NCBI GenBank assembly: GCA_021229015.1
Contig: CM037777.1
Span: forward strand, 21,884,110 to 21,948,109
DNA: 64,000 nucleotides
Direction of reading: 5' to 3'
From: Solen grandis
Taxonomy: Eukaryota > Mollusca > Bivalvia > Adapedonta > Solenidae
Shown: positions 2,573-55,400 of the stretch, piece after piece
Layout of the letters: each line of letters begins with the position of its first letter
How positions within the stretch are numbered: position 1 is the first letter of the stretch
Notes under the pieces: generated by a model
Told to the model about the DNA's origin: nothing
The model's database searches: none
The model's input: only the letters and a program-made list of their open reading frames with translations
Position numbers and translations under genes: made by a program

Positions 2573-3939
2573 CAAGAGCTGTCCGAAAGACAGCATGCTC
2601 GACTATTCGGGTATTTGATAGTGACACAATACCATTGTATTAAAGCGGTATTAAAATAATTTATGTGACTCAATTTAGCAGCATGTTCTGTTTAATTCTC
2701 AGTAAAACTCAGGTCATAATTCAAAAAAAAAATTCAAGGAAAAGTTCATCTTTGATATGTTGGTTGTCTTGTTAAATTAAATATTATTTAAATTAATATA
2801 TAATAGTTATTGTATTAAATAAAAAAAGTTAATGCAATTTTTTAATTTTCTATAAATATTTAATAATTATTATTAACTTAATTGGTTCATGTCTGGGATG
2901 ACTTTTGTGAAGTTTAAATCCAATACACCAAGGGGTTACTGAGTAATGACATTAATTTAGTTGCAAAAAACTTTAACCAAAAATGTTAACGCAAATTTCT
3001 AAGTCGAAAAAGGCCCATGATTTAAGTAAAATTCTAGCAAGAGTTGTTCATCTTGGTTCTGCAGGTCCATTTCATGTTTAGGAAGACTTGTGTGAAGTTT
3101 AAATCCAATACACCAAGTGCTTACTGAGTAATAATATTAACTTAGTTGCAGAAAAACTTTAACCAAAAATGTTAACGCAAATTTCTAAGTCGAAAAAGGC
3201 CCATAATTTGAGTAAAATTCTAGCAAGAGTTGTTCATCTTGGTTCTGCAGGTCCATTTCATGTTTAGGAAGACTTGTGTGAAGTTTAAATCCAATACACC
3301 AAGTGCTTACTAAGTAATAATATTAACTTAGTTGCAGAAAAACTTTAACAAAAAATGTTAACGCAAATTTCTAAGTCGAAAAAGGCCCATAATTTGAGTA
3401 AAATTCTAGCAAGTGTTGTTCATCTTGGTTCTGCAGGTTCATTTCATGCCTAGGAAGACTTGTGTGAAGTTTAAATCCAATACACCAAGGGGTTACTGAG
3501 TAATGACATTAATTTAGTTGCAAAAAACTTTAACCAAAAATGTTAACGCAAATTTCTAAGTCGAAAAAGGCCCATAATTTAAGTAAAATTCTAGCAAGAG
3601 TTGTCCATCTTGGTTCTGCAGGTTGGTTTCATGCTTAGGAAGACTTGTGTAAAGTTTAAATCCAATACACCAAGTGGTTACAGAGTTATGATATTAACTT
3701 AGTTGCAAAAAAAACTTTAACCAAAAATGTTAACGCAAATTTCTTAGTTGAAAAAGGCCCATAATTTGAGTAAAATTCAATCAAGAGTTGTCCCTCTTGG
3801 TTCTCTAGGTTTGTTTTGTGCCTAGAAAGACTTGTGTGAAGATTGATTGCAATACACCTACTGGTTTCTTAGATATGACTGCCGACGCCGACGCCGGGCG
3901 AGTAGAATAGCTCTCATATTCTCCGAATAGTCGAGCTAA
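2573..3939 (+). mobile_element. Family A tandem-repeat element, copy 1 (186-bp monomers)
   Basis: The element starts CAAGAGCTGTC-CGAAA-GACAGC (6-bp hairpin stem), then GCTCGACTATTCGG. It ends with the hairpin TAGCTC...CCGAATAGTCGAGCTAA, so the terminal motif is repeated in inverse. About five 186-bp monomers lie at roughly 2880-3890; repeat landmarks (TCTTGGTTCT) are at 3051, 3237, 3423, 3608 and 3795. A GCCGAC simple repeat (about 3878-3898) precedes the 3' hairpin. It has no coding capacity. Architecture resembles bivalve pearl/HINE or tandem-repeat MITE elements. Confidence 0.78.
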
Positions 3940-4279
3940 TAACAGAATTTAGCTGATTTTTCTTTTTTCCCAAAAAATTATTTTACTGTGTGTCATTTCC
4001 CTAAGTATGTTTTCTTTAATAAACATCAAATATCGCCTCAAGGTAAAAAAATAAATCATTTTGAAAAATATTTTTGTTGTTTTGACAGCAGATGGAGATG
4101 CCATTTTGTTAGTTTACCATCATCACGTGAAATTTGTGACGGCAGTGATTTTTTTGCTTGCAAGGAAGATCAGTGTGTGGAGTTTGTTCCTGACCTTGAA
4201 GAAAGCTGATAGAGATTTCATGCTTATTTTGTGACATGCTTTCTTATATAAAGTATTTCTCTTAGGAGTCTTTATTCTT

Positions 4280-4440
4280 TACCTCATGAATATTCATGTT
4301 CAAATTTATAACTTGATGAATGATTATTGATTGCATATGAAATAATGGATTTTTCTCTGCCATACAAACTGTACAGAAACTGAGCTGCAATGTTGTATGA
4401 GCAAACAGAGGAAACCCTGATCAGATAGCTCCGATAGGAG
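4280..4440 (-). repeat. Short dispersed repeat D, reverse copy
   Basis: It contains CATGAATATTCATG (a 14-bp palindrome at about 4286), AAATTTATAACTTGATGAAT and GTATGAGCAAACAGAGGAAA. It directly precedes the cruciform minisatellite. Confidence 0.6.
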
Positions 4441-4499
4441 TTGGGAGTCCTCTATTTGCCATTGTGTCGAAAAGAGTTTATATGAAGTACCCTTCTCAA

Positions 4500-6244: not shown

Positions 6245-6326
6245 TTGATAGCTTTTAATCTGCCTCTTAAATAACAGGGATTCTATATGACATATATAAT
6301 AGTATGTAGAATCCCTGTATAATTAT

Positions 6327-9517: not shown

Positions 9518-10991
9518 TCAATTGCCTCTACATATTCGCCAAGAATTTGCCACTCTCAAGGAGTATATTACTAGTAACATTCCCATGAAAGAATCAAGTA
9601 CAACATTAATATAAATCAAAGACATATTTTGGAATAGTTCACTGAACACTCCAAAGACCCAGCTATAACTAAAGAGAGACCAGAAGCAAAAACAGAAGTT
9701 AGCGACGGTCATGACTTTAATTCTTCTGTAGCTTTCATTCTGGCCGATACAAAGACGTCCCAATAATTTGGTAATGACCCGCGTCTGTCCAATATTAATT
9801 ACAAGCATTATGACAGCCATTCCTATGGGATTCCGAAGATGAACTGGGTAGGTGTAGGAACCGGACGATTCAACAGATGTTCCACCTACACTTGACATTA
9901 AAAGTGCCTCTGAGACTGCAACAATAGCTATTGGCAGGGTTACTGCAACTAAAGATAACGTAAGCAGTAGTTTGTGCATGTTATGCTGGTCCATGATTTT
10001 CAAAGCTGATATGTTAAAAGCTATAGGTAAGAAATTCAAAACCAACCTTAAGAACTGTAAAACAACGGCCAGATATGGTTGGGTTGCAGATGTTGAATAA
10101 CAGAATACAAATCGAACAACATGAAATAACAGCAGAAAGAAACTGAGAGACAGCATGTAGCAAGAGAGGATCCTGGTGAAATTGTTACTCCAGATAAGCC
10201 AAATGTTTACAACGATTGCAACGACACTTAATAAAACAGAAACACACGAACAGAAAACAACCATGAAAAACAAAATTCTGGTTTAGCCGTTCACTTTCGG
10301 TTTTCTGACGACTGACTTTCAAAGCAGACAGGTAGTATTTGTAGCAAACAAGATAAGATGCATTAGACCTAGTGGTTTGGTTATCAGCGTTGTAGTCAAA
10401 TATATAACTGTCTTTTTCAGCGTTTAAACCTAACATTTCAACATTCTGAGCTGAAACGGCTATCTTAGAACAGTTGTTAAAAGGAAGAGGTACATCTATA
10501 GATTCTTTACATACAGACACACCTTTGCGACTTATTATACGCATATTGGATCTAACCATTTCGTCTTTTTTTATTTTGTAATGCATTTCACCCGTGACCC
10601 CAGAAACTTTGATTCTTTTCTGGTTCCACTCCATAGCCATCAGTAGGCGGTTGACAAGAGTAAGGTAATCACATGTTGAAGTGGTGTATAAGACAAGTAA
10701 TACTGTGTAGATGTCAGAACTACCGATTGTACCATACAGACTTGTCTGACAAACTCCACAACCTATGGTCTCCACCCCAAGTCCGCCAATGGATTCATCT
10801 ACAAAAATCTGATGCACTCGATGGCCCTTTCTTTCAGTTAGTAGTTCCGATACAACTTCAGCGAGTTCTGCTGTTAAGGACAGGTCGATATACATTACCA
10901 GTCCCAATCCATTCATTGCAGAAGAGACAGGGACGCACATTCCGTTCAGTGGAATGGTCCCGGGGGGACAATATAACTGTGTGCACTGATT
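9518..10991 (-). CDS. Receptor gene, exon 2: distal ectodomain plus seven membrane segments in two frames
   Basis: The acceptor is CTCTTTGCAG at 10992-10993. The first frame starts NQCTQLYCPPGTIPLNGMC, a short Cys motif seen before the membrane-proximal domain in related receptors, and continues to about VCYKYYLSALK. The membrane part (ORF 9518-10273) has seven hydrophobic stretches at roughly residues 1-28, 38-63, 67-93, 103-125, 149-170, 188-213 and 218-245. TM6 carries SYSWVFGVF and TM7 carries VVLDSFMGMLLVIY, reminiscent of the W.FG and N..QG..I motifs of family B receptors. The reading-frame change lies within 10250-10282, beside a T-rich run (TTTTGTTTTTC on the coding strand). The stop follows RVANSWRICRGN, so the cytoplasmic tail is very short. 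Confidence 0.7.
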
Positions 10992-13900
10992 CTGCAAAGA
11001 GAAAATTAAATTCTTATAAAGTAATGCATATCTTATATGTGTATCCAACGGCTTAGATTATTGATTTTGAGGAGTTATTTTTTAATCATTTGAAACGATA
11101 GGTATAAACCTCACTTTTGGTTCCAAAACATAATACGGTAAAATCATAAATTTTCGACGACATTATATTTCGTTGATTAAGTACATAAGGGAATTTCGTG
11201 GGTACATTTATTCGTGTAATGAAATGAGCGGTTTTTGTAGGGATTAATATTCGTGCATAAAACTTTCGACGAAGTCAGCGAAAATTAGTGACTCACGCAA
11301 AATTTACAGACATATAATATATTGATATACCATATAAAAATGAAGGTTGTGTATTTTAATTCGTGGAATAAAATGCAGTACTAGAGTTGCATACTGCAAA
11401 TGCAACGGTTTTCGTGATGATCAACAGTTTCAAACCTGATCAGCCAAGTTAAAATTCCAGAAAAACAACAAAATGCAAAACGTTTATATATCTTAGTGTT
11501 TTCCTTCATTGGTGAATTCAGCTGTGACCAAGACTTAAAGGCATCTCGAAAGGAATGTGATGTCCCACTGAGCCAGGCCCTCATCTGCTGTGATCAGACC
11601 TGTTAATTGCTGGTCATCACTGCAGGGAGTCTTTAGCCAATATAGTAGCTATATGGTAAAACCTCTAATGGGTTGATGCGTAACTAAATTACCTGCTACA
11701 ATGGAAGTGAGATAGTAGGCTAGTTTTACACATACATTCATGACCCGTTACATCCCACCCTAAAGGTAGCAGAGCCTGCATCTATTTATAGAACATAGGT
11801 AACCAGTGATGCTCATTCTGTCAATTTTTCTCTGTTTTTATTCTAGGTCATGTATTTAAATTCTCTATAAATTCATCAATTCTTGACAGATTTTCAAAAT
11901 TCTTTTTTTGTTGACGAGGTAAGACATTCTTCTTCCAATGATGACAAAATATATCACACATTTAAACTTTAAAGGCTTTAAAATCATTCAAAGTATGACC
12001 AAACTTCAAACTGCCACCAAACAACCAAATCAACCCCGATCTGAAAAAAATAAAATTCTTCAAAATGTACTCTTTAGAGGCTTTTGATTTTACCCATATT
12101 CTTTCGATAAAATATTTTTAGATTTTAAGATTTTTAAGGTCAAGAAAAAAACAATAATCGCAATATGACCTTGACCTTTGCATTTTTTTTTGAAATTTTG
12201 AAACTGTGAAGACCCTTGAAACAACAAACAATACAATCTGTGAAAATTTCATAAAGATTGATTCAAAAATAATGGCAGAATCATCAAAAAAACTAAAAAA
12301 ACTAAAAAAAATGCCTATTCTCGAAAAATTGTTTCCTCCATATTTTAGTGCACTTTGACCGCTTATTGAAAGCCATTTTAAGCATTTTCTGAAATCGCCA
12401 CCCCATATATTTTGTGCGCAAAGAACTTCGGAATCAATTTCAAAAAACAGAATGAGCGTATCTAATCTCTAACAAAAAACGGGCATGTTTTTCGTGGACA
12501 CACCCTAATTTGCCAATTTTTTTCAAAGATTCAAACATTCAACCTCTTCTAACTCAAAAGTTTCAGAGGTATGGATATTGCCACTCATCATACTTAATTG
12601 GGAAGTTGACAGAGAACAGAATGCAAAATACTGCATACAAATAAACTGTCAAATGACAGAGTTATCAGCAATTATATGTTTTGATGCTAAACGCCACCTA
12701 GCGGCAAAACTTAGTACTAAAATGAAAAACCAATTAAATAGTGCACAACTTCAGATACATGTGAGTATGCATGGAAATTTTCACATTTGTAGCACTTCTA
12801 ATCATGCCGCAACAGCGGTCACAATAAAAGTGCAAAGAATAATAATGATGGAAACAAATTTTTTAAAAAAAGAGAGAGAGAGAAAAAGAAATACAAGAAG
12901 AACAGAAGGTTTTCGCGGCTGCGTTGCAGTCCACGAAAACCTAAAAATATATCAAGCAAATTGTATGAGAACTAAATGATTCAGATAACTCTATATCCTT
13001 GTCTGAATGGTATGATCTTATCCAACTGTAAATGTGTTTATACAATATTTATGGAAGGGGAATCTCCGCCAGTTCATTTCTGTTTCTATTTGAGGTTTCA
13101 CAATGCTTATATGACGATGCTTATAATATTTACAAAATTCTTATTGCATTTTCATAATGCTTATTACAAGCTTGATATTGTAACTTGAAAATTACTTTTA
13201 ACGATCGAGTTTCTGTTTGATGTATTTACGTTAAAAGTTTTATTTTGGAGTTAACGTTCGTATGTTACAAATTGTTAAATATATATTGTAGTTTTTACTT
13301 GCTTATTTTTGACTTTTGAATTACATTTAAGATTAAAAACGTTTTAGTCGGAAAGTTCTGCTACAGATAAGGATCAGGAGTTTTATAAGTATCTGGGCTG
13401 AGGTTCTTTAGAACCGGTATCACGGTGTGATGTATGGAGGCTATTCGTTGCCAAAATCCAGCCTTGTAATCATGACAATTTATACTTCGGTTCAACTAAA
13501 CAGATTTGTAAAAGTATAAACGTTTATCCGAGAGGTACGTATTGTGCTCGTATTGTGCGTTTTGATTATCTCGATTAAACTAGTAACGTTTTTACTTCTA
13601 TAATGTAATTTGGTAACATGCAGCTAAGATAGAATGCAAATAATATTTATAATTTTTCAAACTCAAATTTACGAAATGTACAACGACATACACGACACGT
13701 TTTACGCCGTACATCACGACATTCGAGAATGGAGCCGCCTCAGATAACACTCTCAGGTTTACAACTGCATACTTGACTTTTACATTTCTACGCGATTAAA
13801 ATTTGTAGACGATTTTGCAACTTCCATATATGGCAGTATCACGGAAATAGGCGAAGATTTAAAGGCGGAGCCAAATTTCACGAGCGGAAAATAAAGAGAG

Positions 13901-21650: not shown

Positions 21651-22477
21651 GATACAAGACATGGCACAAAGCGTACATGTGTTAATAATAACTCCGCTTC
21701 ACAGAATCACGCTCGTCACCGACGCCACGTCAATCGTACAATCTCATTACATGAAAACAAGTTGCGATACGGTTTTAATTATCAAAGCAGTTCGCTTAAA
21801 GATTATATGATGAAATTAAAAAAAAAATGTTTTTCTAATCCGTTCGTAAACGCACTTCGGGGAATTCTGGTTAAATAAAGAATAAGGTATCCTAGTGGCA
21901 AGTGCTTCTAAATATAGTTTTATAATTATTCTTAACATATGTTCAGTACCGTTCGTAACGATATTGTCTGTGACGGAGAAACTACCCAATTTTTACAACA
22001 ATGGAATCTTGCGTCTATAGATGTGTATCTGATACACAGATTCTTTTAAATCAAATTCTTAGTTAATGACCATCTGTGACTGAGCTGCTCTTATAGTGAT
22101 AGGTTATATTCCTAGTTAATAAAAATTATACAATATCGCAGGAAGGAAAACATCAAAACTTACTACAGAAATACGTCGAGATATCAAAAAATGTCGATTT
22201 AAAAAATGTCGAAATACAAAATGTCGAGATTAAAATGCATTTTGTTTACGAGTCTTAACAGGAAGAAATCTTGATTTCAAATTTAAAAAAAAGTCCAGAT
22301 ATAATTAGATTTGCATACTGCAAATGCAATGGTTTTCGCGAGGATCAGCAGTTTCAAACATGATCAGCCGAAAAAAGTTATTTTGTACTGTTTCAATCAC
22401 AAGTAACGTCTATTTTAAAAACAGTTATAGCTTATACAAAACAAAAATCATGCTTAGATGAGCCTTTCTCTGTAATC

Positions 22478-22517
<40 letters not shown>

Positions 22518-22518
<1 letters not shown>

Positions 22519-22900
22519 AAGAACCAAAGATGACGTAAAAAATATCGCAACCAAGTAACAAGATAATGATGAAATGCTGTCTATCAGCGATTCAATGGTC
22601 AGTCGTTCTTGAACGGTATTCAGTGTGGTTCATTTGTTAAACAAATTGAAATCTTTGCGCTGGATGTTTTATTAAATAAAGTAAATTTACGTTTGATTGG
22701 CTAAGTGGTATTTTTTTTATACATTTGGTCCTTGCACAGTAAAAATAATAGGCCGATTCAGTAAGGTTGATGCATTTTCATAACTTTTTAATTACATAAT
22801 CATTTGTAAACTGAGTTAAAGTGTATTAAAAATGTTTTGATATGTTCCTACAGAATTTATATATTTAATTTTTGGATTTTTCTTAATATCTTGTTGTGAA
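22518..22900 (+). repeat. 383-bp dispersed repeat, copy 1
   Basis: It begins CAAGAACCAAAGATGACGTA after a long A tract and ends near TCTTGTTGTGAA. It matches 27035-27416 at most positions over its whole length, including the motif CAGCGATTCAATGG and TGCGCTGGATGTTTTATTA. Unclassified. Confidence 0.75.
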
Positions 22901-23589
22901 TTTTACGTCGAGATATAAAAAAATCGATATAAAAAATGTCGAAATACAAAATGTCGAGATAAAAATGCATTTTGTTTACGAGTCTTAACAGAAAGAAATC
23001 TTGATTTCAAATTAAAAAAAAAGTCTAGATATAACTAGATTTGCATACTGCAAATGCAATGGTTTTCGCGAGGATCAGCAGTTTCAAACATGATCAGTCG
23101 AAAAAGTTACTTCTGCTACTGTTTCAATCACAAGTAACGTCTATTTTAAAAACAGTTATAGCTTAATTCAAACAAAAATCATGCTTAGATGAGCCTTTCT
23201 CTGTTATCTTTTAATTATACAGAAATATCAACCAATCTCTTAGAAGAAGAAACAAATCAAAACCTGATCAGCCTTAACTTCAATCTCATTGAAATCATGT
23301 CTCTACTATCCGATTAGGGTCTGACAAAATTGCATTAAGGGTTACGTCATATGTACGTCATATGTACCTGTTAGGTAATACATACATGTACACACAAACA
23401 TATGGCAAATATTAATATCTGCATACGCACACATATGTGCTCTTCAAAATAAGTTTAAGCATAGGAGACCGTCCCCGGTGCCAGGCGCAAAGTACTGGTC
23501 CAATCCAGGAACCGTTGAATGGGATTAGGATAAGTTGTAAGAACTTGTTTCCCAATCGATGTAAAATAAATAAGTTTAAATTTTAAACG

Positions 23590-23855
23590 TTAAAATGGTA
23601 CTGTTATAGCTCCCTTGCTTGGGGCTCAACATATATGGGTAGTTGCAGGACTGATTTGCCTGGTGTCAAGATAATGTGACTTGGTGTGGTACCATGCCAC
23701 GTGCCTCCGGCGTGATACTGCAGTTACAGCACTATTACTGTTTCAAGTAGACCAGGGTATCTTAAATACTGTGTATATATAGAGACCCTGGGTAGACATC
23801 GTCTCCAAATGACTGAAATACTGCTGGTGGGACGTTAAACCCAACCCAACACACA
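23590..23855 (+). mobile_element. SINE S2 copy
   Basis: It contains TAGCTCCCTTGCTTGGGGCT, CGTGATACTGCAG and the tail GGTGGGACGTTAAACCCAAC. The head is absent. A short duplication (TAGACC..GGGTA) interrupts the body at about 23748-23795. Confidence 0.7.
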
Positions 23856-25921
23856 TTAACCATAGCAAATATCAAAATTAATTTCTTTAAAGGGACTCGG
23901 GCGATATATGTAGGATACATGCATGGGAAGTTACAAGCTCAGGGATGAATGGATCTGTGATTTGTTGTCTATTATGTTCATTGTTTCATTTTTTATTTAC
24001 TTATTTTTTTTTTTAGCCGACCATTGGAGCGTACATAAATATATCGCAAACTGATCAGATTTACAAATCTATTAAATGTGTAGAGAATTAATAGAAATAA
24101 TCAATTCAAACTGATCAAACTTCAAACTGCCATCAAACAACCAAATCAATCCCGATCTGAAAAAACTAAAATTCTTCAAAAAGCACCCTTTAGGGGCTTT
24201 TGATTTTACCCATATTCTCTCGATAAAATATATTTAGATTTTGAGATATTTAAGGTCAAAGTAAAAAAAAAAATAATCGCAATATGACCTTGACCTTTTT
24301 TTTTTAAAAGTTTGAAATTGTGAAGTCCTTTGAAACAACAAATTTTATAATTTGTGAAAATTTCATAAAGATTGATGAAAAAATAAAAGCAGAATCATCA
24401 AAAAAAAAACGCAGATTTTCTTTTTTTTTCCCCACATTTTAATGCACTTTGGCCGCTTACTGAAGACAAAATATGCATTTTCTGAAATCGCCACCCCAAA
24501 TACTTTGTGCGTAATGATCTTCTGAATCAACTAAAAGAAACAGAATGAGCCTATCTTATCTCTAACAAAATTGAGAATGTTTTTGTAGACACCAAATGAA
24601 TGCAGATTGCAATCAACAAAACTGCATTTCCCAAAAGTTAAATATGTGGAACAAGCACGTCAGAGGTTTTTAGCAATTATTTGTTTTGATGCAATGCGCC
24701 ACCTAGCGGAAAACTGAGGACAAAATAAAAAAAAATCCAAATGGTGCACAACTTAAGGAACATATGATTATATATGGAAATTTCCGTATTTATAGCTTTT
24801 CTTAACACGCCGCTGTCGATGGTACAAAAAGAGAAAATTATAATAAAAAGAAACAAAAGGAGAGCAATAGGTTTTCGCCTATAGCGCGAAAACCTAAAAA
24901 AAAAAGCAATAGATTTTCGCCAATAGCGCGAAAACCTAAAAAAAAAAAAGGAGACGAATAGGTTTTCGCGCTAAAAAAATATCGAAATTCAAAAGAAAAT
25001 CTGCATAAAAGTTGAAAGTAAACAGCATGATAGGACTTACTTAACATATGATTAAAATTAAGATAAATAAATAAATGATAAATGAATTCCTTACCGTTTT
25101 GTTCAGTTTTCAGCAATGAATGATATTTCATATCCCGAGAAACAAAACTTATAGTAATGAACCTCTATTTTTTTATTTATTTTTTTCACATAATGTCTTA
25201 AATAATACGAAAAGTGATATCTGATCTATTTACTTCTCAATACATTACCCTATTCAATTTCAGCGTCTGCAGGTGTTTCATTAACACGAGATGGATCGAA
25301 ATTCTGATTTAATTAATTATCTGAAAATTATATTTTTTGTTGCTTTTTTGTTTGTTGTTTTTTGTATAATTTTTACATAATTAGATGCATTGTTTGTAAG
25401 TACATCAGGGTATTTCTTTCAGTACTGGCCAGAGACATTTAAATATTCTGTGACTTTCCTTCGACCCTTGCCGGTTTTCGACGTAAAGCGTTTGGTAAAA
25501 CAAGTACCGGTTTATATATTACATAAAAGCATTTACGCATCAATCATCCTACTGCCCTTAACTGAAGGTTGTTGTTTCGAATCTAACTTAGACCATAGAT
25601 ATACTCTTTTTTCGGCTATATTTTGATGAAATTTAACCACTACATGTATGTTTAATATTGTACAGTCACATCACCAGAGATTTATTATCTCTGACATCAC
25701 ACGATTTTATCAAAATATTTATTTGAAAGTTTTAGACGGTTTACTCAATATACGACTGTTTATATTTACACACATACAAAAACTGTAAGAGATGAAATAA
25801 AAAACGAAAACAATCTAAGATTCCTGGCGTCTTATACTATTATACACACATAAACTCAATCTGCGTGTACTTATGAACGATTAATACGTATAATGATATA
25901 TAAATTTTAGAAAATATAAGT

Positions 25922-30110: not shown

Positions 30111-31441
30111 CTAGAGTTGCATCCGCAACATCATCGGTTTTCTCACTTAGATAAGCTTCATACAATGCTATTGTTACTTGACCAGCATTAGACTGCAGGA
30201 AAGTCACTTGACCGCGAGTTGTTTACATCATCCCAGCTACGCTGTGGTCAAATGGCCAATAATACACTGAGAAATATACACACCCCAGTACAGGTAAGAT
30301 AAGCGTTGGACTGAAATATTTTAAAAATTGGGCTTTCGCTACGTATGGGAAATCTAACATAACTCGACCATTTTTTACCCGATCTTCAAAAACTGCATAT
30401 CGTTAGAAAGGTAAATAAACATTCTATAAATCTGATAATAAAATTATAATGATATGTGATTAACCTCTGAGATAAATGCAGAAAACCACTGTGTGTACCT
30501 ATAATTGAGTTTTTTCATAATTATTTTTTTCATTTGATGTCTGACTTTTAAAATTTTGGTACCGTTAGAAAGGTCTCTTAAAGCATAACATTTTATACCC
30601 GTTATGTCTCGATAGAATATTTACCGTTTTTGAGCTATATGAGGTCAAAGAAAAAATCGATATTGCTGATATGACCTTGACCTTTACTACCTTTTATTAT
30701 TTTAAAGTATAAGCTGATTAAGAACATCATACTGCACATTCAGTGAAAATTTCATGAAAATCGAACAAGAAATAAATACAGGAGAACGAAAAAACATGAA
30801 AAAATGACGAAAAATGAAATATTTTAAAAACTTGAATTTTTTATTTTTTCCGTATTCAGTGATCTTTGAACGCCTCTAGCGGATAAACGGTGCATTTCCT
30901 GAAATTGCCACACTATATATTTTGTGCGGCTAGGTCTTGCGAATCTGTTTAAACAAACAAAATTCTTCTATCTTATCAAAGTCGGCCAATATTTCTGTTT
31001 AAAGGGACCTACCATATTTTCTCTTAAAAAACGCGTTATTTCCAAGATTCGAACTTTGGTCCCCTCCTGAACAGGAAATGATATCTTTTTTGAACTTCTA
31101 GACCTATATATTTTGTTGGGGTGCCAATAAGGAACAGAATAAAAAAAACCGTATCTAAATCCGACTTTGGATTTTGGAGATTTTTCAATACAATCAATTA
31201 CATAATAAACGCCACCTAGCGGCACAATGGGAGACAAATCTGAAAAAATGGCTCCTAAGGATCTAAGTCAGGACAATGTGAATAAGTGTTAAAAATTTCA
31301 TGGTCGTAGCTTAATCCTACGTTACTGTAGGCTCGGGACAAATTTTTGACAGAAAAAGAAAAAAAAAAAAAAAAAAAAAATGACAAATAAACACAACGAG
31401 AACAATAGGTTTTCGCACTTCGCAGTTGTGCGAAAACCTAA
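30111..31441 (+). mobile_element. Family C element, copy 3 (inside the hAT-like element)
   Basis: It begins CTAGAGTTGCATCCGCAAC, then CGGTTTTCTC, and ends AGGTTTTCGCAC...GTGCGAAAACCTAAAA. Interior landmarks shared with copy 1 are ATATGACCTTGACCTTT, GAAATTGCCACACTATATAT and CGCCACCTAGCGGC (about 31210). A 24-A run precedes the 3' hairpin by about 30 bp. Confidence 0.75.
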
Positions 31442-35133: not shown

Positions 35134-36288
35134 TTAGCTCGACTATTCGAAGAATATGAGAGCTATTGTAGTCACCCTGGCGTCGGCGTCGGCGTTTGCG
35201 TTGCAGCTTTTGGTTAAAGTTTTGCGTGCAAGTTACTATCAACCTTATATCTCAATAACCGTTTATGGTATTGACTTGAAAGTTTAAAAATATGTTCAGG
35301 GGCATCAGACAACCAAGGTAGATAACTCTTGACTGAATTTAATATGAATTATGGCCCCTTTTTAACTTAGAAATTTTGGTTAAAGTTTTGCATGCAATAG
35401 AAAATTTGGTTAAAGTTTTGCGTGCAAGCTACTATCTAGTTTGTATCTCAATAACCATTCATGGTATTGACTTGAAAGTTTATGAATATGTTTAGGGGCA
35501 TCAGACAACCAAGGTAGATAACTCATTATGGAATATGTTACAAATTATTGCCCCTTTTTAACTTAGAAATTTTGGTTAAAGTTTTGCATGCAAGATACTC
35601 TCATGCTAATATCTCAGTATCCATGCATGTGATTGATTTGAAACATCTTTAATATGTTTAGGGGTATCATACTTTCATAGTAGAAAACTCTTGATGGAAT
35701 ATATTACAAATTATGGCCCCTTTTCAACTTAAAAAGTTTGGTTAAAGTTTTGCATGCAAGGTACTTTTATGATAATATCTAAGTATCCAAGCATGTGATT
35801 GATTTGAAACATCTTAATACATTTAAGGATATCATACTATCAAGTTAGATAACTTTTGATGGAATATATTACAAATTATGGCCTATTTTTGAACTTAAAA
35901 ATTAGTTAAATTTTTGCATTCAAGCTACTTTCCAGCTGATATCTCAGAAATTGCTTGTGGAATTGACTAGAAAGTATAGGAGTGTCTTCAGGGGCATCAG
36001 AAAACCACTTTTGGACTGAAGTTTATGCAAATTTGGCCCTTCTCTAACTTTGATTTTTGGCAAAAGTTTTGCATGCACAGTGTTATTGTGCTTATGTCTC
36101 AGTTACTAGGCATGGGATTGATTTTAGACTTCATAAAAAATATTCAGGGGTGTCAGACTATCAAGGTATATCATTTTTGACTAATATTATGTACAGGGTA
36201 TGTGAAGGGAAAGAATTGAAATAGATTTCATTTGATTTACCAACAAGCATTTTGAATATTCGAGCGTGCTGTCCTCTGACAGCTCTTG
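35134..36288 (-). mobile_element. Family A tandem-repeat element, copy 2, reverse orientation
   Basis: On the minus strand it starts CAAGAGCTGTC-AGAG-GACAGC and CGCTCGA, and ends GAATAGTCGAGCTAAAAA (plus-strand 35134). A GGCGTC repeat near 35180 corresponds to the GCCGAC block of copy 1. Monomers are of a second type, with landmarks AAGTTAAAAAGGGGCCATAA and GGTAGATAACTC recurring about every 165-180 bp. This uninterrupted copy shows where the nested copy at 48585 was broken. Confidence 0.78.
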
Positions 36289-40496: not shown

Positions 40497-43400
40497 CTGT
40501 AATAAAAAGCACCCTTATGTTAGTTTATAGGGTTTAATGTCCACCAACAGTATTTCAGTCATTTGGAGACTATATCTACTTAAGACAGAAATAGTGCTCA
40601 CATCATTCTGACACCAGGACTGGAACTGCCTATCTATATGCAGAGAGCCAAAAAGGAGCTACTAGTACCATTATCAATGACTTGGATATGTCATGGTTAA
40701 GGATTGAACCCATAATAAACAAGAGGGCCAAGATGGCCCTTGGTCGCTCACCTGAGAAAGATGATTGCTTAAGAAATAAAGATACTTGAGTGTAAAAGTG
40801 AAATCTAGCTTTTTTTATGGTGAAATGGGCATAACTCCTAAATTTACAAGTCAATATCAGTTATAATTGAACCCGATTGTGAGATTATGGGCATAAACAT
40901 TGTCTTAAAGTTTAAAAATGATTGTTAAAAAAATGAAGTTGGTAGAGAATAAACAAAGTGAAATCTTGCATTTTTTGTATTAAAAGGGGCATAACTCCTG
41001 ACCTAAATGACCCATCTCAGCCAATTGAACTCAATCGAGACTTTTGGTCATTAACAATGTCATAAAATTTGAATATGATTGCTAAAAAAAGGAAGATGCT
41101 AGAGTGTAAACAAGTGAAATTGGCTTTTTTTTATATTAAAAGGGGCTTAACTCCTGACCTAATTGATGGATCTCAGCCATAATCGAACTCAATCGAGACC
41201 TTATGGTCATAAGCATTGTCATAAAGTTTGAAGATGAATGCTCAAAAGATGAAGATGCTAGAGTGTAAACAACTTGAAATATGGCATTTTTTGAATATTA
41301 AAAGGGGCATAACTCCTAACCTAGAGGTACGATATCAGCCATAATCGAACTTGGCCGTGATTTTATGGTTATAAACATTGATATAAAGTTTGAAGATAAT
41401 TGCTCATAAAATGAAGATGCTAGAGTGCAAACAATGTGAAATCTGGCTTTTTTAATTTTAAAAGGCCATAAATGAACTTGGCCGAGATTTTATGGTTATA
41501 AACATTGTTTTAAAGTTTGAAGATAATTGCTCATAAAATGAAGATGCTAGAGTGCAAACGAACAAATTGTGGACGACGGACGACGGACGGACGGACGGAC
41601 GGACGGACGGACGGACGACGGACATTCATCGATCCTAAAAGCTCATCCTGAGCACACGTGCTCAGGTGAGCTAAAAAGTTTGATATACCTTACCTGTATG
41701 AAGTTTCCGTGGGGAAATATTGCTGAGAGTGGAGACATCATCCAGAGATCCGGCCACACCCGGTCCCCGGGGTACAGGGGGACTGCAGGCCCCACTCAGG
41801 AACCATTCTTTGCTGGAACCCACACCACAATATATAGACAGCATTCTTATATTTATATGCAATATACCGGTACATGCCAAACAAACAGCAAGTGTGATAG
41901 AGATCCTACCACTTGAATTTAGTTGTTTTTTGTTTTTTTATATACAGCACTTGGTGCAAATCGATTGTAACATTTTCTTTATTTTTATGTAGTAAACATA
42001 GTATTGCACTAACCCTCAATATGGGGGTCGGATATTCAGACATGGGTCTTTACAAGGTATTCCAGTTCCTCATTCCAAGGCTTTATTGTTGTAGTATAAA
42101 AAGTGAGTTTTGTGGCTAATGTAACAAATACACTTGTACTAGTCTTCCTTTTAGTTCATTAATTTTTACCCCTTCATAATTTTGGCCTAGAATAGAGACC
42201 ATTCCCAATTAGAAAGAGTGACTTTTTTCTATAAGATTTGAACATAACAGAAAATAGTTAAAGACTAATAGTTAAACAAATAATGTCAAAATTACTTGTT
42301 ATATGTTTCCTTTAAATTACAACAAATAATGTCAGAATTACTGGTTATGTATTTCCTTTTAATTACAATTCACCAACTTTTAGCAATCCATTTATTGTTC
42401 AAAACTTATTAAATGTGTGTTATTGTCCTTCAAATAAGCTAGAATTTTTTTTTTTTCGAATTGCCTATCATGACTATAAACATCACCCACCTTGGGTTAG
42501 AAGAGGTCAAAGTGTCGGAGCTGAGACGCGCCTTCATGTCCGATATCATGTGTTGTCCTTTGTATACAGGCTGCAATTAAAACTTAAGTTGTTGTTGTTT
42601 TTTTTCATTTGAATAAAAATCAAGTTTGTCCCCTATAATCAGACTAACGTTTCAAAAAACTAAAGAAAATTTTATAGATCAGTGACACAAAAATCAGTGA
42701 CAAAGACCTTTCAGTACTGACACTGATATGATCCTCTTTCTTATCACAAGATTAAGTTTCGTACTAAAGGAAAAATTTAGCAGCTGCTACTTTAAAAGAG
42801 GAATGAATAGTGTGTTTATTTGCTTGAGTGTAACATCCCACCAATAATATTCCAGTCATGAGACTAATTGCAATAAATTACACGTAATGATTTAAATAAC
42901 ATTGTAATTACATTACCGGAGCCTTCCAAGTACTGAAGCTGGTATCATCATCGCTCATGGTGGTTGGCGAGTCATCATTGCCTTCCCGCATCACACCTTC
43001 TACTGTAGGGGCCGGGGCTTGATTGTTGGGGGGTGGACTGTGCTGCACCTCCTGTCTCGAGGAGATGATGTTCTCGGGTTCAAACTCGGCACTCCGGCTG
43101 CCCTGGATTTCAGCCAACATCTGGGCCTCGGCTGAGTCTGAGAGTTCTTGCATCTTGTATCGCCGGAAGTCATAGCCTCGCTGTATACAGGTATAAGATG
43201 AAACAATCATAATTAGTTAATTCAATATGTCAAATGGTATCAACTAATATCAATGTAAAACCAGGTATGTTTTTGTAATTCAAAAATAAAATACAACAGT
43301 ACTTGCATATTGAATTTCCAGTTACTAGAATATTAAAAAATGAACCTCAAGAAACACAGTCTGACTGAATAATTCAACAAGTTCTGTTATTCTTTTTCTA

Positions 43401-46400: not shown

Positions 46401-49400
46401 CTATATCAACATGAGTACATTTCTTGAACAAGCATTGCTTTTAAGTTGAATATATAAGTCATTAAACTTTTTTTAACAACTTTCATTGATGAAAAGTTCC
46501 TTTTATAGCATCATATGCATGAATTCACAAATGTATTTGTTTCTTTGTTAGGTTTAATGACCAACCAATAGTATTTCAGTCATTTGGAGACATTGTCTAC
46601 TTGAGACAGACATAGTGCTACCACACTGCAGTTTCATGCCATAGACATGTGGCATGATACCACACCCAGTCACATTAACCTGACACCGGGCCAACCAGTC
46701 CTAGAACTACCCTTACATGCTAAGCGCCAAGCAAGGGAGCTATACCAATTCCATTTTTTACAACTTTGGTATGTCACAGCCAGGGATCAAACCCATGACC
46801 TCCTGCTCCCTGGACACTCTAACCACTCTGCTACTGGGGATGGTCAATCACAAATTTTAAACAGAAAGGTATTTATATGATTGTCAATGGCTGATACCAT
46901 TAGGTTCTATTAAGATTGTTGAAAAAGGAAAATTTAAGTTCCCATTGATTGTGCACATCCCAAACTTTTAGATTATAATTTTGGGAGAACACACAATGCA
47001 CACTATCTATGGTCTTCTATGGTAATTACATGTGGAGGTGAATCATAAGTACACAGAGAACTCTGGACAGAACCACCAACTATCTACAAGCCAGCTAGAT
47101 TGCTTCATAACATAAAAAACCTGACCCTGCCAGGACTTGAACCAACAGCAGGGTGGTGCAAAGTGAAAGCAAGTGAGTGATTTAACCACAGAGGCCCTCT
47201 AGATACCATGTTGTAACTAAATGACAGTAATTTACAAAGATTAGGGGGCCACTGTTTGAGCTGCCTGATACTGTGTTTGTTGGGTTTAACATCCCACCGA
47301 CAGTCCTGAAACTGTTAATCACATGGTAACGGTGCTTTTTCATATACTGCAGTAAGCAAACTTAGCAATAGACTTATAGTCAATCCATCCAATGAATCAC
47401 TTTGGGATAAGAATGATACAGTTTTAAGAGCAGGTGGGCCATTGTAATACAAATGTCTGAATTAAACAGCATTTTTCTTGTTCAAATTAGAGAAAACTGT
47501 TAGCTATAGCATTAATCTTCTTTACTTGAATAATTACAATCAAGCCTAAACTTTAGGCACAACTTCTAGCTCTCATATGACACAACATTATATTGACATG
47601 GATTTCCAGTGGCACTATAAAAATTGGTAGAAATATGAAAGCCTGATTGTTAACAGTCCAACTGGTCACAATGTAAATGTCACAATGTTACTGTACTGAT
47701 TTTGGTGACAGCCTGACCAATTACCTCATTCTGTGTATGTCTTTGCATTGTCACTAAATCATTAATCAAACTTTATTTTGTCTGACAAACTCCATCTCCT
47801 TCAGTTTAATTTCAATAAACTGTTATAATAAAAACATCTTCAGTAAATCCCAGGGGAGTGGTTATAATGACATAGCAATCCGTTGATTGATGGACTAAGG
47901 TCTGCCCTACCTATCACTATCAACATATCCCACTTCCTCCTCCTCATCATCATCTTCATCCTCCGCTGACGAGGACAGCGCATCGGTGGGCTCTAGGTCC
48001 ATCTGATGTTTGAGTATTTCTATCACGTCCGACACAGACTCCTCCATTTCAGCTCCATCAGGCTGGTAGTTGGATGGTCGGTACTCTATAGTAAACATCA
48101 CACATATATCTCCCTCTGTCACAATTCTCATTATATAAATAAACAAGAGCTGTCCATAAGACAGCGCGCTCGACTTTTCTCAGTTCGCCATTAAAGAAAG
48201 GGCCAATCTTTGATGTTATTAGAAGTTGTTGCCCAACCTATTTGCTATTTGTAAATACAGCCAAAAAATATCTAAGTATAAAAGGGTAAAATTGAAAATA
48301 CACTGCATATAGGATTATGGGCCCTGCCAGTAAAGTTGAGGTAGTGTGGGTAAACAATAAATAAGTATTCCAAGTTATGGTGGAATACCTGTGATAGTAT
48401 TGAAAATATACAACTTTGTAAAAAAATTAACCATGATTTCGGCTGTTTTCTAAGTATGAAAGGGGCATAATTCAAGAAGTAGTACAGCCAGGGTTATGGG
48501 CCTTGCTAGTAAGGCAGAGGTAGTGATGGTGAATAAGTACCTGAAGTTTCAGTCAAATACATGTGATAGTACAACTATGTAAAACAAGAGCTGTCAGAGG
48601 ACAGCACGCTCGACTATTCAAAATGCTTGTTGGTAAATCAAATGAAATCATTTTAAATTCTTGCCCTTCATAGTAATAGTAAACAAGAGGGCCATGATGG
48701 CCCTGGATCGCTCACCTGATATCATTAGGCTATGTAAAATCAAGTGACCCCTGGGGCAGAGCCAATTTTGACCCCAGGGTCATGATTTGAACAAACTGGG
48801 TAGAGGTCTATTAGCCCATGTTACATACCAAATATCTAAACTCCAGACCTTGTGGTTTTTGAGAAGAAATTTTTCTAGATTTTTTTCCAAAATAAGTCTA
48901 TGTAAAATCAAGTGATCCCTGGGGAGGGGCCAATATTTTCACCAAATATCTAAATGCCAGGCCATGTGTTTTCTAGTTTCCTAAAAAGAAGAATTTTCAA
49001 GTTATTTCTATATTAGCCTATGTAAAATCATGTGACCCCTGGGGCGGGGCCAAATTTGACCCCAGGGGCATGATTTGAACAATCTTGGTAGAGAGTCATA
49101 AGATCATGCTACATACCAAATATCTAAACTCCAGGCCTTGTGGTTTCTGAGAAGAAGATTTTTTCAAGTATTTCCTATATTAGCTTATGTTAAATCAAGT
49201 GACCCCTGGGGCAGGGCCAAATTTGACCCCAGGGCCATGATTTTAACAAATTTGGTTGTGATCTACTAGACAGTGCTGCACACCAAATATCTAAACCCCG
49301 GGCCTTGTGGTTTCTGAGAAGAAGATTTTTCAAGGTTTTTTCCTATAGTAGCCTATGTTAAATCAAGTGACACCTGGGGCGGGGCCAATTTTGACCCCAG

Positions 49401-52400
49401 GGTCATAATTTTTACAATCTTGGTAGAGAGTCATAAGATCATGCTACATAACAAAAATCAAAAGGCTAGGACTTGTGGTTTCTGAGAAGAAGATTTTTCA
49501 AGTTTTTCCTATATTAGCCTATGTAAAATCAGGTGACCCCTGGGGCGGGGCCAAATTTGACCCCAGGGCCATGATTTGAACAAACTTGGTAGTGATCTAA
49601 TAGACAATGCTGCACACCAAATATCTAAACCCAGGCCTTGTGGTTTCTGAGAAGAAGATTTTTCAAGTTTTTCTATATTAGCCTATGTTAAATCAAGTGA
49701 CCCCTGGGTTGGGCCAGTTTTGACCCCAGGGTCATAATTTGAACAATCTTGGTAGAGAGTCATAAGATCATGCTACATACCAAATATCTAAACTCCAGGC
49801 CTTGTGGTTTCTGAGAAGAAGATTTTTTCAAGTATTTTCTATATTAGCCTATGTAAAATCAGGTGACCCCTGGGGTGGGGCCAATTTTGACCCCAGGGCC
49901 ATGATTTGAACAATCTTGGTAGAGATCAAAGACAATGCTACATACCAAAAATCAAAAGGCTAGGCCTTGTGGTTTCGGAGAAGAAGATTTTTCAAGTTTT
50001 TCCTATATTAGCCTATGTTAAATCACGTGACCCCTGGGGCGGGGCCAATTTTGACCCCAGGGTCATAATTTGAACAATCTTGGTAGAGAGTCATAAGATC
50101 ATGCTACATACCAAAAATCAAAAGGCTAGGCCTTGTGGTTTCGGAGAAGAAGATTTTTAAAATTTTCATTTTTAAAATCTATTTTTAGCTCCTGTGACCT
50201 AGATTTTTGACCAATCAAAATAATTTTAACAACTTCGGATAAGGGCCCCATAATGAACATTCCTGTGAAGTTTTATCAAAATTGACCAAGCGGTTAAGGA
50301 GGAGATGTCGTTTGAAGCAAAATGTTGACGGACAACGGACGGACGGACGACGGACGGACGACGGACGGACGGACGACGGACGAAGACCGGTCACAATAGC
50401 TCACCTTGAGCCTCTGGCTCAGGTGAGCTAAAAATGATATACCTTGATAGCCTGATACCCTTTAATATATTTATGATCCCATGCCTAGTTACTGAGACAT
50501 AAGCACAATAACACTGTGCATGCAAAACTTAAACCAAAAATCCAAGTTAGAAAAGGGCCATAATTTGCATCAGTCCAAAAGTTATCCTCCTGTTTTCTGA
50601 TGCCCTTGAAGACACACCTTAACTTTCTAGTCAATTCCACAAGCAATTTCTGAGATATAAGGTGGATAGTAGCTTGAATGCAAAAATTTAACCAAAATTT
50701 CTAAGTTAAAAAAGGGGCCATAACTTGTAATATATTCCATAAAAAGTTATCTACCTTGATAGTATGATACTCCTAAACATATTAAAGATATTTCAAATCA
50801 ATCCCATGCCTGGATACTGAGATATAAGCATGAAAGTAACTTGCATGCAAAACTTTAACCAAAATTTCTAAGTTAAAAAGGGCAATAATTTGTAACATAT
50901 TCCATCAAGAGTTATCTACCATGAAAGTATGATACCCCTAAACATATTAAAGGTGTCTCAAATCAATCCCATACCTGGATACTGAGATATTAGCATGAAA
51001 GTACCTTGCATGCAAAACTTTAACCAAAATTTCTAAGTTAAAAAAGGGGCCATAATTTGTGATATATTCCATCAAGAGTTATCTACCTTGGTTGTTGATG
51101 CCCCTAACATATTATAAACTTTCAAGTCAATACCATAATGGTTATTGAGATAAATGATAGTACTTGCACGCAAAACTTTAACCAAATTTTCTATTGCATG
51201 CAAAACTTTAACCAAAATTTCTAAGTTAAAAAGGGGCCATAATTTGTGATATATTCCATCAAGAGTTATCTACCTTGGTTGTCTGATGCCCCTGAACATA
51301 TTTATAAACTTTCAAGTCAATACCATAAATGGTTATTGAGATATAAGGTTGATAGTAACTTGCACGCAAAACTTTAACCAAAAGCTGCAACGCCAACGCC
51401 GACGCCGGGGTGACTACAATAGCTCTCATATTCTACGAATAGTCGAGCTAAAAATTACCATGATTTTGGTTGTTTTCTAAGTATGAAAGTGGTATAACTT
51501 AAGAAGTAGTACAGCAAGAGTTATGGGCCTTGTTAGTAAGGTAGAGGTAATGATGGTGAATATGTACTTGAAGTTTCAGTTGAATACCGTAGATAGTATT
51601 GAAGATATACAACTTTGTAAAAACTTTAACCTTGATTTTGGCTGTTTTGTAAGTATGAAAGGGGCATAACTCCAAAAATAGGGTAGCCAGGGTTGTGGGC
51701 CTTAGAAGTAAGGTAGAAGTGATGATGGTGAATAAGTATTTTAAGTTTGGGTGGAATACCTTTGAAAGTATTTAAGTTATTGATGTTTGAAAAAAACTTT
51801 AACCTTGTGTTGCAATGCCGACGCCGATGCCGACGCCGACACCCGAGTGACAGTATAAGCTCTCATTTTCTTCGAAAAGTCGAGCTAATAAGTCCTGGCA
51901 ACATAATGTATAACAACTTAGACTATTGCAGTGTAATAAAAGTCCACTACCAGAATGGGCTTTGTCACACTAAATAGAACCAAAATTAAACAAGAGGCCC
52001 ATGATGGCCCTAAATCGCTCACCTGAGATAAACAGGTTGACCCAAGGAACATCTGTTCCAATTTATTTTAAAATCTGGCCAGTAGTTTTGAAGAAGATGA
52101 TTTTTAAAGTTTTCATATTTTTTTTCTTTTTGTAGCCATGGCAACCAGAGTTCTATATGGATCAAGTTTATTTTAGGAACTTTTGTGAAGGTTGACCCAA
52201 GGATCATTCCTGTCAAGTTTAATCAAATTCTGTCCAGTGGTTTCAGAGGAAATGTTGATTAAAGTTTTCCCTATATACATATAAGGCAAATAAGCCCCGC
52301 CCCTGGCGGCCATGTTTTTTACGGATTGGAATTTTTTTTAGCAACTTTGGTAGAGGTTGACCCAAGGAACATCTGTACCAATTTATTTTAAAATCTGGCC

Positions 52401-55400
52401 AGTAGTTTTGAAGAAGATGATTTTTAAAGTTTTCATATTTTTTTTCTTTTTGTTGCCATGGCAACCAGAGTTCTACATGGATCAACTTTATTTTAGCAAC
52501 TTTTGTGAAGGTTGACCCAAGGATCATCCCTGCCAAGTTTAATCAAATTCTGTCCAGTGGTTTCAGAGGAGATGTTGTTTAAAGGTTTCTCTATATACAT
52601 ATAAGGCAAATAAGCTCCGCCCCTGGCCGCCATGTTTTTTTACGGATCAGAATAATTTTAGCAACTTTGGTAGAGGTTGACCCAAGGAACATCTGTACCA
52701 ATTTATTTTAAAATCTGGCCAGTAGTTTTGAAAAAGATGATTTTTAAAGTTTTCATTTCTTTTTTCTTTTTGTTGCCATGGCAACCAGAGTTCTTCATGG
52801 ATCAACTTTATTTTAGCAACTTTTATGAAGGTTGACCCAAGGATCATCCCTGCCAAGTTTAATCAAATTCTGTCCAGTGGTTTCAGAGGAGATGTTGTTT
52901 AAAGGTTTCTCTATATACATATAAGGCAAATAAGCCCCGCCCTTGGCGGCCATGTTTTTTTACGGATCGGAATAATTTTAGCAACTTTGGTAGAGGTTGA
53001 CCCAAGGAACATCTGTACCAAATTATTTTGAAATCTGGCCAGTAGTTTTGAAGGAGATGATTTTTAAAGTTTTCATTTTTTTTTTCTTTTTGTTGCCATG
53101 GCAACCAGAGTTCTACATGGATCAACTTTATTTTAGCAACTTTTATGAAGGTTGACCCAAGGATCATCCCTGCCAAGTTTAATCAAATTCTGTCCAGTGG
53201 TTTCAGAGGAGATGTTGTTTAAAGGTTTCTCTATATACATATAAGGCAAATAAGCCCCGCCCCTGGCGGCCATGTTTTTTTATGGATCGGAATAATTTTA
53301 GCAACTTTGGTAGAGGTTGACCGAAGGAACATCTGTACCAAATTATTTTGAAATCTGGCCAGTAGTTTTGAAGGAGATGATTTTTAAAGTTTTCAAATTA
53401 TTTTTCTTTTTGTTGCCATGGCAACCAGAGTTCTTCATGGATCAACTTTATTTTAGCAACTTTTGTAGAGCCTCACCCAAGGAACATTCCTGCCAAGTTT
53501 CATTAAATTCTGTCCAGCGGTTTCAGAGGAGATGTCGTTTAAAGCAAATTGTTGACGACGGACGACGCACGACGGACGACGCACGACGACCGACGCCGGA
53601 CGAAGGGCGATCACAAAAGCTCACCTTGAGCACTTTGTGCTCAGGTGAGCTAAAAATATTGACATATCTTAGCTGAAATCAAGTTTGTTGTTAATGATAC
53701 ATGATGGTTTGTTTTATACAACAGATTTTCATGTGGACAGAGATCAGGTTGCCAAGGAAATTTAATTTTTATGTTGCTCAGACACTGGCAACATATTTTA
53801 ATCAACTCTTGGATTTGGTTGGAAAAAAGGAATAATAATATTAAGAATAACATAACAAACCCTATACATTTTCCGTAGGTTTTCAGAAAGCCGTAACGAT
53901 GTGCATAATCTCCATATTGACATCTATCCATATTTCAAGTTCATGAAAATATCCGAGTACTTTCAGAATTATCACATGATCCAATTTTTGCAATATTTCA
54001 AGTCTATCTATTTGTTACCATAGCAACAACATTTCTCAAATAGGGACAAAATAAAATGATGTGCATAATCTCGATATTGCCATCTATCCATTTTTGAAGT
54101 TTCATGAAAATATTGCAATGTTGCCGATACTGACACCGACAACGGACAAAGTAATCCCTTTGTGTTTGCCATGCTATGCAGGTGACACAAAAAATGGTAC
54201 ATAAGCCCTAGTGTCATTTTCAACCTGATAGGAGATTTGATATCCTGCATGCATTGAGGACTGTCCCATCTCCTTCTAAATGGGTTTCTATATGCACTTA
54301 GAATAGTTGCACAGTCTGCCCTCCACATGCAGATGGACAAATGATGGAAAAGTAATCCCAATGTGTTACCTCTGCTTACAGCAGGTGACACAACAAATGA
54401 CCAGACCTTAAGTATCCTATTATCTAACAGCCATCCCAGGATACCATGTGATCAATGGATAACCTGGTTTACACAAAATGACACATGGGTTTGTCTACGA
54501 TACTTGTTGTGATCAATTTACCAAATCATGAATTTAAAATAATCCAATATGATAACTATAGGGAAAGTTGGAGCTTAAATTTTCATTTCAAAATGGAAAA
54601 GGTCATTTTTCATGATATCTACATGTTTATATATAGAGCAAAACTGATATTCCGAGAATTTTTTCCAAGCATTGTGCCTATTCTGAGGAGAATTTCTGGC
54701 AGCCTATTCTGAGGAGAATTGTTCCCAGCATTGTGCCTACACAAAGTTTTATCCTAGATGCTATGAGGAGAAACAGAGGGAAAATATTCTCAATAAATGG
54801 AGCCTTGCAACTATCTGAATATTTCCCTATCAGTCCCTGGAATATGGCAATGTTGCTGTATAAAGATTGCTGGCAATTTCTCTAAACTCACCTTTCCTCT
54901 GAGGTCGGTTGATGCGGATATCAACCGGAGGTTTTCTCTGCTGCTCCACAGACTTCCCATGGGGACCTGACTCATTGCTGCTACTGCTTGTGTTCAGCTC
55001 TGTACCATGGGCAGTGTCCTGGTTACCACTGGCACCAGTTACCGAGGAAACACTGGTTCCTATACCCTCATCTGGAGAATAAAAACAACAAGCAATGTCT
55101 AAGGTGTCAAGATCTAGAAATAGGTCTCCCTCAATCATGCAAAAGAACTTTAAAATGCAAATTATATTTCAAACTAAAAAAAAAACAAAAAAAAAAAGAT
55201 TTTTACAAAAATTTAAAAAATTTTTTTTTTAAAAATTAAAACCCATTTTGAGAACTTCATTTATGTTTGACAAACCTTTGCCAACAAGTGGTAATTTTAA
55301 TCTAAAATATTTTTTTCATAAAATGCCTGGATAATTAAAAGCTTAATGAATGTCACCATTTATGGGAAAACTGAGCCACTTTAAGGCAAATCGAGGATGT

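What the first reader, a model, noticed from the sequence alone, without database searches (positions are those of the whole stretch)
2573..53653. Three repeat families share one terminal design ending in a hairpin plus CTAA
Seen: families A (2573, 35134, 48144, 48585), B (40720, 48684, 51991) and C (11381, 30111) all start CWAGAG with a small hairpin and a motif (GCTCGACTATTC, TCGCTCACCTGA or GGTTTTCG). They end in a hairpin containing that motif's reverse complement, then CTAA and A. The stems stay while the loops vary (CGAAA, CATAA, AGAG in family A). Known: Helitron-type rolling-circle elements end in a hairpin plus CTRR; bivalve pearl/HINE elements have tandem cores and simple repeats near one end. 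Inference: A, B and C are non-autonomous elements moved by one enzyme that reads the shared ends. The 5' end is not the canonical TC, so this may be a variant type.
Basis: partly seen in the sequence, partly recalled or inferred. Interest (0 to 1): 0.8.

Follow-up and report, generated by a model that had tools for sequence, protein, structure and literature searches.

The report
Rolling-circle hitchhiker elements, read backwards

Summary
The repeats are real and far beyond chance, but were read on the wrong strand. Turned over, each copy runs TTAG + subterminal repeat + inverted copy ... reverse complement of the repeat + palindrome + CTCTWG, in T-rich sites: the published anatomy of HINEs, non-autonomous Helentrons. 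'Hairpin + CTAA' is the 5' end (TTAG) read backwards, not Helitron CTRR; 'CWAGAG' is the 3' end. The genome holds at least 150 Rep matches. In four lineages whose 3' end was fixed, that end (CTAG/CTTG, three with a clear palindrome) lies downstream of the endonuclease tail, which sets the orientation. One lineage ends, in 2 of 2 copies read, with family B's 36-nt 3' end: B's probable partner. Its 5' end was not found, and no firm partner for A or C. Four filled/empty pairs show no duplication longer than an ambiguous TT. C forms head-to-tail clusters; 22 of 38 close end-to-end junctions are seamless CTCTAG|TTAGG. A, B and C differ in subterminal repeats, so 'one enzyme reads the shared ends' is not supported. 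Verdict: new members of a known kind, with two useful extras, B's probable partner and the joined-end clusters.

The parts
2573..3939 (-). HINE family A copy; 5' TTAG end at 3939, 3' CTCTTG end at 2573; ~186-bp central repeats
35134..36288 (+).
48144..51888 (-). HINE family A copy (outer), interrupted by the next one
48585..51451 (-). HINE family A copy inserted in the 48144 copy; paralogous empty site at 48409-48484
48684..50431 (-). HINE family B copy inserted in the 48585 copy; paralogous empty site at 36131-36249
40720..41674 (-). HINE family B copy; 162-bp central repeats, 4-base (GGAC/GTCC) microsatellite near its 5' end
51991..53653 (-). HINE family B copy; 320-bp central repeats, GTC-containing microsatellite
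11381..12944 (-). Family C copy; no long tandem core found
30111..31441 (-). Family C copy; no long tandem core found
3908..3939 (-). Example of the 5' end: TTAG + subterminal repeat GCTCGACTATTC + inverted copy (hairpin with internal loop)
   Evidence: fold
2573..2608 (-). Example of the 3' end: GAATAGTCGAGC + palindrome GCTGTC..GACAGC + TCTTG
22305..24939 (-). Degenerate C material: 3' ends at 22305 and 23035, two 5' ends 42 bp apart at 24897 and 24939

Best explanation
A, B and C are non-autonomous Helentrons (HINEs) copied by rolling-circle enzymes (Rep + PIF1 helicase + endonuclease) made by autonomous Helentrons elsewhere in the genome. On the working strand each starts TTAG + subterminal repeat + inverted copy and ends with the repeat's reverse complement, a palindrome and CTCTTG or CTCTAG. 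Inferred mechanism: Rep and endonuclease nick at the 5' end in oligo-T, a strand is peeled off and copied until the 3' palindrome signals stop, and the strand or its circle joins another T-run; when the stop is missed, head-to-tail units with joined ends result. Shown: end design, orientation, T-rich target, no long duplication in four site pairs, autonomous genes in the same genome, an autonomous lineage with B's 3' end, seamless C junctions. Inferred: the enzyme steps, and that the B-ended lineage moves B.
For: Anatomy matches published HINE/Cg_HINE/DINE-1 features (passages; section in 13). 150 Rep matches scored of 228 candidates. Of 30 Rep loci read, 30 have S in RGSPHxH and 25 fit my regular expression for the whole signature. 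One ORF piece (L042) has Rep, PIF1 and endonuclease domains, four others parts of the set. For C8, C18, C16 and C14 copies the Rep match and the endonuclease match report the same open-frame length, 1,503, 1,513, 1,507 and 2,575 aa, so presumably one frame. 3' ends fixed by divergence between copies: L043/L046, L044/L047/L067, L042/L062. C8 and C18 copies (L058+L083, L059+L084): 95.6% over 4.3 kb from the endonuclease tail, then an identical 36-nt B 3' end, then unrelated flanks. L065+L080: 781-bp derivative with HINE-type 5' end, its last 501 bp identical to L043's 3' end; L064 is the empty site. B insertion in L072+L081 against empty L073: T3|TTAG..CTCTTG|T3 versus T6. Two more empty sites in the window. 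C: 70 of 100 listed copies clustered, 48 of 48 neighbour pairs within 10 kb same-strand, 41 of 48 spaced 1,250-1,700 bp; 38 close 3'-to-5' junctions, 22 seamless.
Against: No firm autonomous copy with A or C ends: a scan of 77 loci found A 3' ends in two (L047, L075), each without an A 5' end, and no C end. For the B-ended lineage the 5' end was not found: upstream of two copies homology begins without TTAG or the B repeat. Its aligned block stops 36 nt early, where L059 has 44 extra bases before the B end, and the tail holds, by eye, a short piece like a B core monomer in reverse, so the B end there could have been acquired. C lacks the microsatellite and tandem core usual in bivalve HINEs. 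B's identical subterminal repeat is 10 bp, below the published 11-bp family rule. A second paralog of the A site (51552-51671) does not match exactly. C 11381 has TA, not TT, after its 3' end. The L044 palindrome is weak. Five of 30 Rep loci miss part of the Helentron signature.
Confidence: 0.93

Rival explanations
1. Canonical-like Helitrons as the first reader oriented them: CWAGAG 5' end, 3' hairpin + CTAA (a CTRR end).
For: A hairpin is followed by CTAA on that strand, which fits the CTRR rule by letters.
Against: All 30 Rep loci read carry the S of the Helentron motif and five ORF pieces scanned carry an endonuclease domain. In the four lineages with a fixed 3' end the CTAG/CTTG end is downstream of the ORF tail; L065+L080 shows both ends in the HINE order. 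Sites are T-rich, not A^T. Some published Helentrons have reversed ORFs, so ORF direction alone is not absolute.
Confidence: 0.04
2. MITE-type elements moved by a cut-and-paste DDE transposase, with a TT target duplication and subterminal inverted repeats.
For: Subterminal inverted repeats exist, and neither the four site pairs nor the seamless junctions exclude a TT duplication (element AG..CTWG).
Against: Repeats are subterminal and asymmetric. B's 3' end and the end design are shared with Rep-helicase-endonuclease elements. Head-to-tail C clusters fit rolling-circle copying better. DDE partners were not searched for.
Confidence: 0.03
3. C clusters arose by unequal crossing-over, or by repeated insertion at the neighbour's TT, not by rolling-circle overrun.
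For: Equal spacing near 1,440 bp and constant orientation are what tandem duplication gives too; insertion at a flanking TT with a TT duplication would also give CTCTAG|TTAGG.
Against: 22 of 38 close junctions join the exact ends with no base between; crossing-over between separate insertions would keep flanking DNA between units unless they began adjacent.
Confidence: 0.4

Closest known systems
Cg_HINE elements of Crassostrea gigas (PMC7492417, passages)
   Same: 5' subterminal repeat + complementary IR, GTC-type microsatellite, satellite-like tandem core, 3' subterminal repeat + palindrome, oligo-T target, no duplication, different cores between related ends
   Different: No sequence comparison was made. 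There no autonomous partner could be tied to them; here one lineage shares B's 3' end. Family C has no tandem core
HINE-Mo / DINE-1 and Helentrons (PMC4067079, passages and sections 7, 15)
   Same: Terminal design, T-rich target, Rep-PIF1-endonuclease partners, deletion derivatives sharing the 3' end, clusters
   Different: Here four site pairs fit ends TT..CTWG; C shows seamless end-to-end junctions
Pearl family (CvE, MgE) of bivalves, as described in PMC7492417
   Same: Elements with ~160-bp core repeats, reclassified as non-autonomous Helentrons
   Different: No pearl sequence was compared here
FoHeli (Helitron2) of Fusarium oxysporum (PMC5148889, passages)
   Same: Asymmetric inverted repeats, hairpins, joined ends
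   Different: No endonuclease; joined ends there seen as PCR products, here as junctions in the assembly
Canonical Helitron (Helitron1)
   Same: Rolling-circle Rep-helicase, 3' hairpin
   Different: TC..CTRR ends and A^T target not met

Membership tests
HINE / non-autonomous Helentron | Subterminal inverted repeats of about 11-15 bp at both ends | tested here: inconclusive
   By eye: A 12 bp, exact in 3 of 4 copies, one mismatch in the fourth (met); B 10 bp identical in 3 of 3; C 10 bp exact in one copy, one mismatch in the other. B and C fall just short
HINE / non-autonomous Helentron | Inverted copy of the repeat next to the 5' repeat | tested here: met
   5' hairpin in 10 of 10 folded copies, degenerate C included
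HINE / non-autonomous Helentron | Palindrome near the 3' end | tested here: met
   by eye 84 of 99 distinct A ends listed keep the consensus 6-bp stem, one of the 15 others by a compensating change
HINE / non-autonomous Helentron | Microsatellite and tandem central repeats (frequent, not required) | tested here: inconclusive
   Present in A and B, not seen in C
HINE / non-autonomous Helentron | Insertion in T-rich sequence without target duplication | tested here: met
   4 filled/empty pairs; they cannot tell element-borne TT from a 2-base TT duplication
HINE / non-autonomous Helentron | Autonomous Rep-helicase-endonuclease partner with the same ends | tested here: inconclusive
   B: same 36-nt 3' end in 2 of 2 copies read, 5' end not found; A and C: none firm
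Helitron1 (canonical) | 5' TC and 3' CTRR | tested here: not met
   Ends are TTAG..CTCTWG on the working strand
Helitron1 (canonical) | Insertion between A and T | tested here: not met
   T-rich sites, empty sites within T-runs
DDE MITE | Terminal inverted repeats at the very ends and multi-base target duplication | tested here: not met
   Repeats subterminal; no duplication longer than TT in 4 pairs
DDE MITE | DDE transposase partner sharing the ends | not tested
   No search was made

The most novel reading that the evidence does not exclude
Family C clusters are chromosomal fossils of Helentron joined-end molecules: the machinery passes the 3' end and continues exactly at the 5' end, laying down seamless full-length units, so the exact element ends (TT..CTAG) and the circular or overrun intermediate can be read from the assembly itself.
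Probability: 0.4. Interest if true: 0.5.

Novelty: new member of a known kind. Interest (0 to 1): 0.35.

Why it matters
It corrects the reading direction of a very abundant repeat class (B alone about 18,563 places by its 3' end). It proposes an autonomous lineage for an abundant HINE family, a link that the oyster study reports it could not make (passage), and gives end-to-end junctions with which the exact ends and the intermediate can be tested.

Tried and rejected
Tried: an A-ended autonomous copy near C1:236860; L039 showed Polinton-like ORFs and L003 a HINE tail, so rejected. L075 has an A 3' end about 780 bp after its endonuclease match, but with HINE-like DNA before it and no second copy to compare: a weak lead only. 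Autonomous 5' ends: not reached in 1.5 kb upstream nor in longer pieces. Strict C pattern: one hit, replaced by a looser one. 3' ends not settled for the lineages of L041/L045, L040/L052/L082, L054-L057, L064, L066, L068-L071 and L072-L079. L042/L062: a HINE-like module lies inside the tail, so that end may be acquired. Junction tests for A and B did not complete. Species not identified; bivalve relatives of one ORF (best 59% identity) are only a hint.

Considered and rejected: canonical Helitron (wrong ends and target); DDE MITE (see rivals); chance (controls 0).

Full report
Observation. The listed ends are in the window. Nine copies could be bounded: four A, three B, two C, plus degenerate C material at 22.3-24.9 kb. 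One stated start, 35134, is the far end of a minus-strand A copy. Three copies are nested at 48.1-51.9 kb. Genome-wide places against reversed-pattern controls of zero show these are families, not chance.

Reading direction. Turned over, each of the nine copies starts TTAG, a subterminal repeat and its inverted copy. A and B then have a GTC-containing microsatellite and a tandem core of about 160-320 bp; each copy ends with the repeat's reverse complement, a palindrome and CTCTTG (A, B) or CTCTAG (C). This is the order described for HINE-Mo, DINE-1 and Cg_HINE (PMC4067079: passages, abstract and outline, sections 7 and 15; PMC7492417: passages). Cores differ between copies with the same ends, as reported in the oyster.

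Autonomous elements. A search with Pfam Helitron_like_N gave 150 scored matches of 228 candidates. Of the 30 loci read, 30 have the S of the Helentron motif RGSPHxH and 25 fit my regular expression for the whole signature; L028 and L033-L036 differ at the first diagnostic position. Of five ORF pieces scanned, one (L042) has Rep, PIF1 and endonuclease domains, two have PIF1 and endonuclease, two endonuclease only; loci are cut, so absence says nothing. The 1,368-aa L042 ORF piece has relatives in Pinctada (59% identity), Mytilus and other animals.

3' ends of autonomous copies. Comparing near-identical copies, homology stops at ...GTGGGGGCATCCGTGTCCTTTGGACACAGTTCTAG (L043/L046), at ...TTCTAG (L044, L047, L067) and at ...GTGTTCCAAGGAACACCCACATCTAG (L042/L062), all downstream of the ORF. 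L044's palindrome is weak, and L042's tail contains a HINE-like module, so that end may be acquired. In the C8 and C18 copies (L058+L083, L059+L084) 95.6% identity runs 4.3 kb from the endonuclease tail; then come 0 and 44 extra bases, then the identical 36 nt TCAGGTGAGCGATTAAGGGCCATCATGGCCCTCTTG, which is the B 3' end, then unrelated flanks. Two of two copies read this far end so; others were not read. Their Rep and endonuclease matches report the same open-frame length, 1,503 and 1,513 aa. Upstream of two copies of this lineage (C8, C14) no B 5' end was seen. I call it B's probable partner, about 0.7.

A and C. In a scan of 77 loci (all held but L001-L008 and L039) A 3' ends occur in L047 and L075, B ends in L048, L049, L062, L072, L080, L081, L083 and L084, and no C end; all ten lie in the sense of the neighbouring Rep/endonuclease frame. 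L075 is a weak lead for A.

A complete small derivative. In L065+L080 an element of 781 bp starts ATGCCCCCAC + inverted copy + GTCC microsatellite, and its last 501 bp are identical to the L043 autonomous 3' end; L064 is the empty counterpart. So within this genome a HINE-type element shares the 3' end of an endonuclease-coding element, with both ends in one copy. The 5' end of an intact L043-type copy was not read.

Target sites. Filled and empty: A 48585 against 48409-48484, T4 + T3 for T7; B 48684 against 36131-36249, equal length with one mismatch at the site; B in L072+L081 against L073, T3 + T3 for T6; L065+L080 against L064, T6 + T3 for T7, which fits if the element carries TT. All four fit ends TT..CTWG without duplication; an element AG..CTWG with a TT duplication would fit as well. 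A second paralog of the A site fits less well, and C 11381 has TA after its 3' end.

Clusters. Of the first 100 listed C places (of 356), 70 lie within 10 kb of another; all 48 such neighbour pairs are same-strand and 41 are 1,250-1,700 bp apart, mode near 1,440. Junctions with up to 30 bases between C ends number 38, control 0; 22 are seamless. Many cluster neighbours are therefore joined in some other way, not read. A and B neighbours within 10 kb also share strand, 10 of 11 and 24 of 26, against 54 of 98 and 64 of 99 for all neighbours in the listed places; nesting and local duplication may explain part. Tandem arrays of Helitrons are described (PMC4067079 section 15), and joined ends in Fusarium (PMC5148889 passages).

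Mechanism. Shown: ends, orientation, target, partner-type genes, seamless junctions. Inferred: nicking by Rep/endonuclease in oligo-T, strand peeling, stop at the palindrome, overrun giving joined ends. Not supported: one enzyme for A, B and C; by the published rule elements with different subterminal repeats are different families.

Novelty. New families of a known kind. In the listings of searches I saw no title or abstract start that ties an autonomous Helentron to a bivalve HINE; most of those papers were not opened and the library lacks most subscription papers and preprints, so this is weak. Opened as passages only: PMC7492417, PMC5148889, PMC10294476, PMC11136912.

Noticed in passing
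G000 C-family places: Head-to-tail C clusters with ~1.44-kb spacing, and seamless CTCTAG|TTAGG junctions
   Followed up: partly
G000:C1 A-family 3' ends: Three pairs of A 3' ends only 99-112 bp apart on the same strand
   Followed up: no
L047, L048, L049, L062, L072, L075, L080, L081, L083, L084: All ten A or B ends found in the Helentron loci lie in the sense of the Rep/endonuclease frame
   Followed up: no
window 24897-24969: Two to three C 5' ends in tandem, about 42 bp apart, separated by T-runs
   Followed up: no
L039 (minus strand): ORF pieces resembling a Polinton/Maverick DNA polymerase and packaging ATPase, by eye, beside Helentron helicase remains
   Followed up: no
L083, about 50 nt after the B 3' end: A degenerate B 5' end with GTCC microsatellite just downstream of the autonomous copy, same strand
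   Followed up: partly
L040/L052 and L042/L062: Other HINE families (repeats GTGTCACCTGCTGC and GTGTCGCCTGC) sit in the 3' tails of autonomous Helentrons
   Followed up: partly
window 56630-58037 (+) and 62015-63543 (-): ORFs that look like LINE reverse-transcriptase pieces, by eye
   Followed up: no
window 9518-11057 and 17898-18887 (-): ORFs that look like exons of a membrane receptor, by eye
   Followed up: no
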